Assembly: GCA_009760855.2 (NCBI GenBank)
Contig: WPIO01000217.1
Coordinates: 186,001 to 250,000, forward strand
Length of the DNA: 64,000 nt
Source of the DNA: Cristatella mucedo
Taxonomy: Eukaryota > Bryozoa > Phylactolaemata > Cristatellidae
Direction: 5' to 3'
The position numbers and the translations under genes were made by a program. Below the pieces are notes generated by a model that was not told where the DNA came from, did no database searches, and saw nothing but the letters and a program-made list of their open reading frames with translations. Positions 17,835 through 33,396 of this stretch are shown piece after piece. Each line of letters begins with the position of its first letter. Position 1 is the stretch's first letter.

Positions 17835-18045
17835 TCAATGTGGCCCCAGCGAGAGGGCACTGTGGCCACCAGAAGACAGAGATCTAGAGCCAAACATCTC
17901 CTGCGAGGCATACGACATGTAGAGAAATCCATCGGGGTCGACCTCGTCTCGGTAGATTTCGGACAGCGTGGTCGACATGCTGACGATGCTCTTTTCGTTG
18001 ATGAGCAAGTAAAAAGCTTGGTTGGGGCTAAGCGACATCCTTGCC
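17835..18045 (-). CDS. MAP1LC3C: LC3C-like exon 4 (residues 73-142, with stop)
   Basis: The acceptor is a pyrimidine-rich stretch ending CTTCTCAG before 18045. The exon completes the arginine codon and encodes [39 protein letters not shown], then 17 residues (Ser/Gly/His/Leu-rich) to TGA at 17837-17835. The lipidated glycine codon is 17891-17889. Atg4 would remove the 17-residue tail. Confidence 0.97.
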
Positions 18046-33000: not shown

Positions 33001-33396
33001 TCTGCGGCTGCAGTATCACGGGATCGCCTGCAGTAGCTGGTCTGGTCACGATTAGTTCCAGGAACTATGCTGCTGGCCTGAGAGTAGCCCAAACATCAAT
33101 TGAGGGAAGCCAGGGGGAGGAGGCCGTAGTTGAGTGGGGTGCACCAGCTGCACGGGGCTGCCATGCATGGCTGCGTCCGGCTTAATTAGGAGATACCAGC
33201 CGACCCACGAACGCCGGCCGGCAGTCCAGTGCACCTCGTGACTAGCGGTGACGTACAGGACTCGCTGCAGGGGACAAGCTGCCAGCCTCATGCAGTCAAT
33301 CACAGCCAATAATCGACTAGCCCCGCGGCGATGGCTCTTACCGAACGTCTTCCGCTGCTTAAACGAAAGTTTCCCGTTCTCGGCTGCTTCAGGCAT
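17835..33396 (-). CDS. MAP1LC3C: Atg8-family autophagy protein, LC3C-like (4 exons)
   Basis: Atg8/LC3 proteins are ubiquitin-like. They are joined to phosphatidylethanolamine on autophagosome membranes after Atg4 trims them to a C-terminal glycine, and they recruit cargo receptors through LIR motifs. Four minus-strand exons (33396-33342, 25683-25628, 21931-21825, 18045-17835) join in phase to 429 nt, that is 142 aa plus stop. Visible landmarks: FKQRKTF (residues 12-18), [15 protein letters not shown] (23-37), VIVERY (38-43), DKTKFL (53-58; the K-F-L of the LIR-docking pocket), RARM (73-76), NQAFYLLIN (81-89), SEIYRD (101-106), DGFLYM (111-116) and YASQEMFG with Gly125. The RARM and IYRD segments and the tail after glycine fit LC3C better than LC3A/B or GABARAP. 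All three introns have GT-AG ends, and their phases (1, 0, 2) match, to my recollection, those of animal LC3 genes. No frameshift or stop is seen, so the gene looks functional. Confidence 0.95.
18155..18235. repeat. (CA)n microsatellite in LC3C-like intron 3
   Basis: About 80 bp of CA dinucleotide with two CTGACA interruptions at its start. Confidence 0.95.
18575..18715 (+). mobile_element. LINE-B tail fragment
   Basis: AAGTGCCAAGAAAGAGATTG and TTATTATTATT; the 3' half of the stem-loop is mutated. Confidence 0.45.
18838..19205 (-). mobile_element. LINE-B fragment with internal deletions
   Basis: The tail segment (AACTTAATCTCTTTCTAGGC), 3' UTR, and coding pieces (CAAGATGGGATGCAAGCAAT; GTGACCGTCTACTGAAAA), matching 5800-6610 with gaps. 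Confidence 0.65.
19206..19648. other. Unassigned intron sequence
   Basis: Within LC3C-like intron 3; nothing recognised. Confidence 0.3.
19649..19728 (+). mobile_element. LINE-B tail fragment
   Basis: AAAGCGCCTAGAAAGGGATC, AGGGCGCTT, then (ATT)n. The inner stem has changed on both sides (GGGA/TCTCC). Confidence 0.65.
20308..20585 (+). mobile_element. SINE-1 copy split by a SINE-2 insertion
   Basis: The tRNA-like head at 20308-20385 (GGGCCAACCAGTAAGG, then GGCTTGAGCC) and the LINE-B-like tail at 20543-20585 (AGATTAGGTTCTCTTAGGGC) are separated by a minus-strand SINE-2. Confidence 0.6.
20386..20536 (-). mobile_element. SINE-2 insertion with TSD
   Basis: A 151-bp SINE-2 (AGAAGAGCCTTACCGGCTAT; tRNA-like head with TTGAACTC). 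It is flanked by AAATGA at 20380-20385 and 20537-20542. Confidence 0.65.
20586..21394. other. Unassigned intron sequence
   Basis: Within LC3C-like intron 3; nothing recognised. Confidence 0.3.
21395..21574 (+). mobile_element. LINE-B 3' end
   Basis: 3' UTR plus a perfect outer stem, AAAGCGCC (21500-21507) and GGGCGCTTT (21531-21539), then (ATT)n. Confidence 0.8.
21825..21931 (-). CDS. MAP1LC3C: LC3C-like exon 3 (residues 38-72)
   Basis: 107 nt with acceptor GATTTACAG before 21931 and donor GTAAGT from 21824. It encodes VIVERY, then [16 protein letters not shown] and II, ending in AG of a split arginine codon. This is the core of the ubiquitin-like fold, including the K-F-L residues of the LIR-binding pocket. 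Confidence 0.96.
22435..22540 (-). mobile_element. SINE-1 copy, degraded
   Basis: TAGCACCCAAGAGAATGTAA, CTCTATTCAGG, GGCTCGAGCCC (B-box region). Confidence 0.55.
22541..23199. other. Unassigned intron sequence
   Basis: In LC3C-like intron 2. A strong minus-strand acceptor-like run (TTTTCTTTTGCTTTTCTTCAG, 22953-22973) is followed by an open frame of about 24 codons with no usable donor; not called as an exon. Confidence 0.3.
23200..23640. repeat. Degenerate GCA/CAG trinucleotide region
   Basis: Imperfect GCA repeats, densest at 23445-23635. They read as Ala-rich or Gln-rich on plus and Cys/Leu-rich on minus. They lie inside intron 2, so they are not likely to be coding. A second, smaller GCA-rich patch lies at 25553-25615 beside exon 2. 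Confidence 0.8.
23700..24114. other. Unassigned intron sequence
   Basis: Nothing recognised. Confidence 0.3.
24115..24583 (+). mobile_element. LINE-A 3' fragment, degraded
   Basis: ACAATAAATTGGCTGCTCCA, CTCACTGCCACAACTCTAAT, CCTGAGCTGCTACTTCCATG, GGAGTTACAGACTGACAAAG, ACATTACATT. Confidence 0.75.
24789..25046 (-). mobile_element. LINE-A insertion, 5'-truncated, with TSD
   Basis: The 3' end at 24789 (ATGTAATGTATCTCCGTCTG), truncated at 25046 in the C-terminal coding end. AGCAATG flanks it at 24782-24788 and 25047-25053. Confidence 0.85.
25628..25683 (-). CDS. MAP1LC3C: LC3C-like exon 2 (residues 19-37)
   Basis: 56 nt with acceptor ACTTCTGCAG before 25683 and donor GTTGGT from 25627. It encodes (E)[18 protein letters not shown], the second helix and the start of the first beta strand of Atg8 proteins. 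It enters in phase 1 and leaves in phase 0. The length equals that of LC3 exon 2 in vertebrates (from memory). Confidence 0.95.
25878..26330 (-). mobile_element. LINE-B-related fragment
   Basis: A long (AAT)n tail (25878-25935), the stem-loop remnant, then coding 3' pieces (TTTTAAAAATGTCATCAAGT; CAGCTAAACGATTTGAGTCT). Confidence 0.6.
26394..26502. repeat. (AT)n microsatellite
   Basis: About 105 bp of AT with ACATACAT interruptions, in LC3C-like intron 1. Confidence 0.97.
26560..26652 (-). CDS. Candidate cassette or alternative first exon in LC3C-like intron 1
   Basis: A 93-nt open segment on the LC3 strand, bounded by TTTTTAAG at the 5' side and a consensus donor GTGAGT (from 26559). It enters and leaves in phase 1, the same phase as LC3 intron 1, so inclusion would add 31 residues without a frameshift. 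It contains [12 protein letters not shown] and then a charged stretch ([11 protein letters not shown]). Its own ATG at 26617-26615 has A at -3. I do not recognise the protein. An in-frame TAA lies just upstream of the acceptor. It may equally be chance or belong to no transcript. Confidence 0.2.
26828..27010 (-). mobile_element. LINE-B tail fragment
   Basis: (AAT)n, then CTCAGAGGACTCAAATCTCC and ACCTAGGCACTTTAAATC. Confidence 0.55.
27180..27345 (-). mobile_element. SINE-1-like copy, degraded
   Basis: CTTCACATATGCCACAGGAC, AACGCACGACCTCGATCG, then a decayed head (AAACCTGGGCCAAAGC). Confidence 0.4.
27680..28240 (+). mobile_element. LINE-A coding fragment
   Basis: From the segment after FIGHPKR (GATGCTGCTGTGTGACTGTC) through SRLDYCNS (CAGCTAGATTATTGCAATTC) and HGVAPSSL to NELAVLFYA. 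It lacks the LINE-A 3' end; many stops. Confidence 0.8.
28332..28500. repeat. Purine-only (GGA-rich) tract
   Basis: Long runs of only A and G on the plus strand (for example AGAGAGGGAAGGGGAAAGGA). A strong strand asymmetry of this kind can form triplex or slipped DNA. Confidence 0.85.
28560..28805 (+). mobile_element. LINE-B-like 3' fragment
   Basis: TTAATAATCAGACCTTTAAA (end of ORF), then CAAGCGCCTTAAAATAGATT and GAGGGCTCAAAACAAATG with an ATT-rich end. Confidence 0.45.
28806..29639. other. Unassigned intron sequence
   Basis: Within LC3C-like intron 1; nothing recognised. Confidence 0.3.
29640..29943 (+). mobile_element. Two LINE-B-type tails, the second with a (GAT)n end
   Basis: First: CAGGCGCTATATAGATGAAT, then ATTATTATT. 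Second: GAGTGCCTAGAAAGAGATTT, GATTCTCTTGAG, then (GAT)n at 29906-29942 instead of (ATT)n. Confidence 0.5.
30075..30170 (+). mobile_element. LINE-B 3' UTR fragment
   Basis: ACATTGTGCACGCTACCACG, AATCATTTGATCATGATTCC, TTTACAGCATATGTAAAG. Confidence 0.45.
30171..31117. other. Unassigned intron sequence
   Basis: Long overlapping open frames at 30420-31040 on both strands, without a recognised domain. GA-rich at 30930-31110. Confidence 0.3.
31118..31198 (-). mobile_element. LINE-B tail fragment
   Basis: (AAT)n, then TAGCACCCTCAGAGAACTCG and ATCTCTTTCCAGGCACTTTA; it is truncated directly before a GA repeat. Confidence 0.65.
31206..31358. repeat. (GA)n microsatellite, interrupted
   Basis: About 150 bp of GA with GGAGA and GAGGGAGAGG interruptions. 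31359-31910 beyond it holds nothing recognised. Confidence 0.97.
31911..31980. repeat. Compound (CTAT)n(AT)n microsatellite
   Basis: (TATC)n at 31912-31945, then AT dinucleotides to 31979. Confidence 0.95.
32005..32062 (+). mobile_element. LINE-B tail fragment
   Basis: AAGCACCAAGAAAAATATTA, GCTCTGAGGGCATTATA, TTATTATT. Confidence 0.5.
32497..32605 (+). mobile_element. LINE-A coding fragment
   Basis: GGACCACTGCAATTCCGTTT, TGGCTAGGCTACC, AAGCCTCTGCAACCAGTGAC: the LDYCNSLLAGLP region. Confidence 0.6.
32606..33341. other. 5' part of LC3C-like intron 1, CpG-rich
   Basis: GC-rich sequence next to exon 1. Frames here (32675-32938, 32940-33185 plus) are on the opposite strand and unrecognised. Confidence 0.3.
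33342..33396 (-). CDS. MAP1LC3C: LC3C-like exon 1 (residues 1-18)
   Basis: The ATG is at 33396-33394. The exon encodes an N-terminus of 11 residues followed by FKQRKTF, the conserved first-exon motif of LC3. It ends TTCG followed by GTAAGA (donor at 33341), phase 1. The next exon starts AA, giving a split GAA (Glu) codon. The start is chosen because this ATG lies at the distance from FKQR expected for LC3 proteins. Confidence 0.93.

What the first reader, a model, noticed from the sequence alone, without database searches (positions are those of the whole stretch)
17835..33396. Complete four-exon LC3C-type Atg8 gene buried in retrotransposons
Four small exons spread over 15.6 kb assemble in phase to a full 142-residue Atg8 protein with Gly125 and an unusually long 17-residue C-terminal tail. 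Introns make up about 97% of the gene and are dense in LINE/SINE copies. The RARM and IYRD signatures place it with LC3C, a type lost in many model animals.
Basis: partly seen in the sequence, partly recalled or inferred. Interest (0 to 1): 0.75.

Follow-up and report, generated by a model that had tools for sequence, protein, structure and literature searches.

The report
Ordinary invertebrate LC3C autophagy gene
This is an intact-looking animal gene for LC3C, a small protein that cells attach to membranes during self-digestion; it belongs to a known family, and its main interest is that an invertebrate copy carries a long tail like the one reported for human LC3C.

Summary
Four minus-strand exons join in phase at GT-AG boundaries into a 142-residue protein with Gly125 and a 17-residue tail. 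It matches Pfam ATG8 (E 2.2e-38); among solved structures human LC3C is the best hit (164 bits; LC3B 141, LC3A 134, LGG-2 128). A nine-protein tree puts it in the LC3 clade (100/100); pairing with LC3C is favoured, not proven (60/51). Three of four residues of LC3C's special ligand site are identical, the fourth is Lys-to-Arg. The host is an invertebrate (572-Mb assembly; mitochondrial TGA and AGR read in frame). Its assembly showed a GABARAP-like, a GABARAPL2-like and this single LC3-type gene; no LC3A/B-type gene was seen. CpG depletion over the gene body fits germline transcription. "Buried in retrotransposons" is overstated: repeats cover at least 18% of the gene, 27-29% of its flanks. LC3C outside vertebrates is already described (Hydra). 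New member of a known kind; the invertebrate long tail is the one point worth following.

The parts
33342..33396 (-). exon 1 coding part: ATG and residues 1-18 plus first base of codon 19
   Evidence: donor GTAAGA; first ATG after an in-frame stop at 33466-33468; own-genome match to query 1-24
25684..33341 (-). intron 1 (7.7 kb, phase 1), CpG observed/expected 0.57
25628..25683 (-). exon 2, residues 19-37 (N-terminal helices)
21932..25627 (-). intron 2 (3.7 kb, phase 0, between Pro37 and Val38; the GABARAP-like gene on C687 has an intron at the same place); CpG o/e 0.55
21825..21931 (-). exon 3, residues 38-72 and two bases of codon 73
18046..21824 (-). intron 3 (3.8 kb, phase 2, inside the Arg73 codon, which aligns with LC3B Arg68); CpG o/e 0.76
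17835..18045 (-). exon 4: end of the ubiquitin-like fold, Gly125, 17-residue C-terminal tail, stop TGA
33763..34419 (-). LINE-like copy (3' half) ending 366 bp upstream of the start codon, same strand as the gene; not part of the gene proper
   Evidence: 39 other places in the genome match this stretch nearly whole at 81-83% (only 40 candidates were scored); ORF 33832-34419
16756..16761 (-). nearest downstream AATAAA/ATTAAA hexamer, possible poly(A) signal about 1.07 kb past the stop (consensus match only)

Best explanation
A functional, single-copy LC3C-type Atg8 gene of an invertebrate animal, probably a lophotrochozoan. It is transcribed on the minus strand as a four-exon gene with large repeat-bearing introns. 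The 142-residue precursor would be cut by ATG4 after Gly125, releasing a 17-residue peptide, then activated by ATG7 and ATG3 and joined to phosphatidylethanolamine on autophagosomal membranes, where its LIR-docking site recruits cargo receptors. Because it keeps the residues that set human LC3C's ligand site, it should accept flat hydrophobic (CLIR-like) motifs as well as ordinary LIRs. Shown: gene structure, domain, LC3 clade, residues, single copy in the searched assembly. Inferred from the family: cleavage, lipidation, cargo binding. Inferred from CpG: germline transcription.
For: Intact spliced ORF. ATG8 domain. LC3C best PDB hit. LC3 clade 100/100. R15/T55 switch; R73 at the Arg68 position that human ATG4B cleavage needs (PMC3686597 abstract); R31/F32/L63/F68 at LC3C K32/F33/L64/F69, the four residues shown together to set NDP52 specificity (PMC3510444 passages). 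Gene-body CpG o/e 0.62 against 0.89 and 1.03 in the flanks, 7 of 640 circular shifts as low; same contrast in the GABARAPL2-like gene (introns 0.56 and 0.64, outside 0.99 and 0.88). Only LC3-type gene found.
Against: No RNA evidence. Pairing with LC3C only 60/51.6, and grouping with LC3A/B plus LGG-2 not rejected (p-AU 0.295). 12 of 35 discriminating positions match neither. Ser117 replaces the Val/Thr said to be usual in LC3 at the Atg8-108 position. Low CpG is not unique: 2 of 20 sampled 10-kb loci of unknown content are below 0.62; the GABARAP-like locus shows little contrast (0.83, 0.72); intron 3 is only mildly depleted (0.76). Three of the four CLIR-site residues or close forms also occur in GABARAPs.
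Confidence: 0.85

Rival explanations
1. It is the LC3A/B-type (or an unduplicated LC3-type) gene that has kept LC3C-looking ancestral residues, not an LC3C orthologue.
For: Tree cannot reject it with LC3A/B and LGG-2 (p-AU 0.295). Of the 15 LC3C-like positions, 7 also occur in human GABARAP or GABARAPL2 and so may be ancestral. No LC3A/B-type gene was found in the genome.
Against: Eight LC3C-like states are absent from human GABARAP and GABARAPL2 (K16, F32, R45, E62, M76, Y85, M96, R105) against four for LC3A/B (K47, S66, Q82, T98) (counted by hand). LC3C is 23 bits ahead of LC3B. Hydra is reported to have both LC3A- and LC3C-type genes, so the split is old (PMC7507827 and PMC7615515, passages).
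Confidence: 0.11
2. A decaying or unexpressed copy (pseudogene).
For: No transcript data; long repeat-bearing introns; small contig (C130, 307 kb).
Against: No stop or frameshift in 142 codons, all splice dinucleotides intact, the checked functional residues kept, introns present so not a processed copy, and no other LC3-type copy found in the assembly.
Confidence: 0.03
3. The 17-residue tail is an annotation artefact: the real mRNA is spliced or polyadenylated differently near Gly125.
For: Hydra LC3C has a 378-bp CDS (125 aa), with a ubiquitin-like region to 123, hence little tail (PMC7507827 table).
Against: The frame runs on without a break to TGA. The only GT[AG]AG match in the exon 4 region scanned (start of exon 4 to 40 nt past the stop) lies after the stop codon. 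Human LC3C also has a long tail (PMC10173779).
Confidence: 0.07

Closest known systems
Human LC3C (MAP1LC3C)
   Same: 66.1% identity over 115 residues; R/K-F-L-F ligand-site set; long C-terminal peptide (17 here; 20 reported)
   Different: Arg for Lys32; own tail sequence; no receptor NDP52 tested in this host; 12 of 35 LC3C-versus-A/B positions match neither
Hydra LC3C (HvLC3C, CDG67574.1)
   Same: LC3C-type gene in a non-vertebrate beside GABARAP and GABARAPL2 (PMC7507827 passages)
   Different: Hydra also has an LC3A-type gene; its LC3C CDS is 378 bp, so its tail is short. Sequence not available here, not compared
Human LC3A and LC3B
   Same: LC3 fold class, charge switch, Arg68 position; intron at the Arg68 codon as in human LC3B (PMC3686597 abstract)
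   Different: 55.0% and 57.5% identity; Q26/H27/V58/L63 at the LC3C-specific site; short tails
C. elegans LGG-2
   Same: LC3-type
   Different: 51.3% identity; window plus LGG-2 as one clade is rejected (p-AU 0.004; LGG-2 is a long branch); no tail after Gly (PMC7615515)

Membership tests
Atg8 family | Atg8 ubiquitin-like domain | tested here: met
   PF02991 E 2.2e-38, 131 bits against cut-off 27, profile 2-104 of 104
Atg8 family | C-terminal Gly for lipid conjugation | tested here: met
   Gly125 aligned with LC3B Gly120
Atg8 family | Arg at LC3B position 68 for ATG4 cleavage | tested here: met
   Arg73; requirement from PMC3686597 abstract
Atg8 family | cleaved by ATG4 and lipidated | not testable with these tools
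   needs a bench assay
LC3 subfamily | positive residue at LC3B 10, acceptor at 50 | tested here: met
   Arg15 and Thr55; GABARAP-type rows have E/D and K/R (rule from PMC7615515 section 11)
LC3 subfamily | two loops one residue longer than GABARAP | tested here: met
   both extra residues in the alignment
LC3 subfamily | non-aromatic residue 3, Val or Thr at Atg8 position 108 | tested here: inconclusive
   residue 3 is Glu, but the 108 position is Ser117: not GABARAP's Ala, not Val/Thr
LC3 subfamily | falls in the LC3 clade | tested here: met
   100/100 among nine proteins
LC3C | best match and clade with LC3C | tested here: inconclusive
   best hit yes; clade 60/51.6 only, alternative not rejected
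LC3C | ligand-site set Lys32, Phe33, Leu64, Phe69 | tested here: met
   Arg31, Phe32, Leu63, Phe68: 3 of 4 identical, 1 conservative (set from PMC3510444 passages)
LC3C | long peptide after the conjugated Gly | tested here: met
   17 residues; 20 reported in human. Not universal: Hydra LC3C CDS is 378 bp

The most novel reading that the evidence does not exclude
The long ATG4-removable C-terminal peptide is an old part of animal LC3C, not a primate invention, and this animal has dropped LC3A/B so that LC3C does all of its LC3 work. The 17-residue peptide would then be a conserved-in-kind functional product rather than a by-product.
Probability: 0.25. Interest if true: 0.45.

Novelty: new member of a known kind. 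Interest (0 to 1): 0.25.

Why it matters
[quoted passage not shown] An LC3C-type gene in an invertebrate with mitochondrial AGR sense codons, with the ligand-site set and a long tail, supports the second view and offers a system in which LC3C may be the only LC3, so its own function could be tested without paralogues.

Tried and rejected
Rfam gathering scan and ARAGORN on the window: 0 hits each; ARAGORN here uses bacterial settings. Pfam on 10 chosen window ORFs (of the 72): reverse transcriptase in 2, nothing in 8, so no neighbour gene was named; shorter exons of neighbours would be missed. Vertebrate (lamprey) origin, my first guess from base composition, was dropped: COX1 on the mitochondrial contig C688 has 11 AGR and 15 TGA codons in frame. 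Judged by eye against the best PDB COX1 chain (7o37), ATA aligns with Met at 9 of 11 places and AAA with Lys at 2 of 2; AGR aligns with Ser at 3 of 10, Ala at 4, and Thr, Gly and Lys at 1 each. This fits code 5 and excludes the vertebrate code; Ser for AGR is likely, not proven. Paper searches for an LC3C report in lophotrochozoans (8 listed of 8,962, none of the 8 holding LC3C) were uninformative. Structure prediction was not run: 66% identity to solved LC3C made it needless.

Full report
The observation. Donors read GTAAGA, GTTGGT and GTAAGT; acceptors CTGCAG, TTACAG and CTCAG. Phases agree, the 429-nt CDS has no inner stop, and Gly125 is followed by 17 residues, [17 protein letters not shown]. 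The start ATG is the first Met after an in-frame stop. The nearest poly(A)-like hexamer lies about 1.07 kb downstream. Introns are 97.2% of the gene.

Identity. Pfam: ATG8 only, E 2.2e-38. PDB: 112 distinct chains at E<=0.001, 60 shown; the first five are LC3C (164.3 to 161.3 bits), then LC3B (best 140.9), LC3A (133.6), LGG-2 (127.7), with GABARAPL2 at 93. Identities over aligned residues: LC3C 66.1% of 115, LC3B 57.5% of 120, LC3A 55.0% of 120, LGG-2 51.3% of 115, GABARAPL2 43.1% of 116, GABARAP 36.2% of 116.

Tree. Nine proteins: the window, six named ones (human LC3A, LC3B, LC3C, GABARAP, GABARAPL2; worm LGG-2) and two partial paralogues of the host. LC3 rows separate from GABARAP rows at 100/100; LC3A, LC3B and LGG-2 group at 92/90; the window with LC3C at 60/51.6. 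Holding the window with LC3A/B and LGG-2 costs 1.5 log units and is not rejected (p-AU 0.295); window plus LGG-2 alone is rejected (p-AU 0.004), though LGG-2 is a long branch. Where LC3A and LC3B agree and LC3C differs (35 positions), the window is LC3C-like at 15, LC3A/B-like at 8, neither at 12. Removing states also seen in human GABARAP or GABARAPL2 leaves 8 against 4 (counted by hand).

Functional residues. Arg15 and Thr55 are the LC3-type charge switch, Arg73 is the Arg68 position, Gly125 the conjugation site. LC3C's NDP52 specificity needs Lys32, Phe33, Leu64 and Phe69 together (PMC3510444, passages); the window has Arg31, Phe32, Leu63 and Phe68, LC3B has Gln, His, Val, Leu. GABARAPs share most of this set (Lys, Tyr, Leu/Ile, Phe), so it separates LC3C from LC3A/B, not from GABARAPs. 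Ser117 is neither the Val/Thr of LC3 nor the Ala of GABARAP.

Host and paralogues. The window is C130:186001-250000 of a 572,011,866-base assembly in 688 contigs. Searches of that assembly with the Pfam profile, the window protein and human LC3B found the same three genes each time: this one, a GABARAPL2-like gene on C221 and a GABARAP-like gene on C687 (paralogue names from their sequences). The profile detects this gene's exons 3 and 4 (37 and 57.8 bits), so an LC3A/B gene of the same build should have been seen, but only top candidates are scored and the assembly may have gaps. Intron 2 lies at the same place as an intron of the GABARAP-like gene, and intron 3 falls in the codon matching human LC3B Arg68, where human intron 3 also lies (PMC3686597 abstract). 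The mitochondrial contig C688 (21,008 bp, code-5-like) carries, all on one strand, what I read by eye as cox3-atp6-cox1-nad3 ... nad1-nad6-cob-nad4L-nad4-nad5 (only cox1 was checked by search). From recall this order resembles lophotrochozoans; the species is not identified.

CpG. The gene body has CpG o/e 0.62 (TpG 1.18, CpA 1.30) against 0.89 downstream and 1.03 upstream; 7 of 640 circular shifts are as low, including shifts overlapping the gene itself. Introns 1 and 2 are 0.57 and 0.55, intron 3 0.76, the CDS 0.92. Twenty other 10-kb loci average 0.84 (0.46-1.14), 2 of 20 below 0.62. In the C221 gene, intron pieces are 0.56 and 0.64 against 0.99 and 0.88 outside the matched exons; the C687 locus shows little contrast (0.83 and 0.72). 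This is the footprint expected of invertebrate gene-body methylation (established knowledge), hence of a gene transcribed in the germ line; it is suggestive, not proof.

Repeats. A reverse-transcriptase domain is found in two window ORFs outside the gene. Against a 200-kb sample, repeat matches cover 18% of the gene (introns 16, 25 and 18%), 27% downstream and 29% upstream; none touches an exon. A LINE-like copy ends 366 bp before the ATG. So the gene sits among retrotransposons like its surroundings, but is not enriched in them.

What is known. A review states that Hydra has all four subgroups (GABARAP, GABARAPL2, LC3A/B, LC3C) and that rodents lack LC3C (PMC7615515, passages and section 11). 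Another work dates LC3C to an ancient split (PMC13020874, passages). A third lists Hydra LC3C with a 378-bp CDS (PMC7507827, passages). Against these, PMC10173779 (passages) calls LC3C autophagy a late program of higher primates with a 20-residue C-terminal peptide. This gene fits the first view. What it adds is an invertebrate LC3C-type gene with a long tail in an assembly where no LC3A/B gene was found. I did not establish whether other invertebrates have such tails.

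Noticed in passing
window 36000-38000 and 48000-53000: Stretches with CpG o/e 1.1-1.4 and GC 0.55-0.62, possibly promoters or first exons of unnamed neighbours; one ORF tested at 35971-36459 had no Pfam match.
   Followed up: partly
window 33763-34419: LINE-like copy ends 366 bp upstream of the start codon on the gene's strand; it could supply promoter or 5' UTR sequence.
   Followed up: partly
window 19652-19734, 21493-21575, 31129-31195, 38110-38192, 44950-45032, 50759-50825: A short interspersed family with an (ATT)n-like end on both strands, matched up to 24 times in a 200-kb sample; SINE- or LINE-tail-like, not named.
   Followed up: no
L044 3078-3365 and L045 (contig C688 11632-11919 and 13747-14034): The 21-kb mitochondrial contig carries three copies of one block, two on the plus and one on the minus strand, with identical translations; real duplication or assembly artefact not tested.
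   Followed up: no
G000:C166:4375626-4376390, C83:3121-3735, C549:2641741-2642010: COX1 fragments on nuclear-sized contigs, probably nuclear copies of mitochondrial DNA.
   Followed up: no
window 48100-48186 and 10113-10280, 31207-31357, 45827-45915, 60140-60347: A (GCG)n run and several long GA/TC microsatellites.
   Followed up: no
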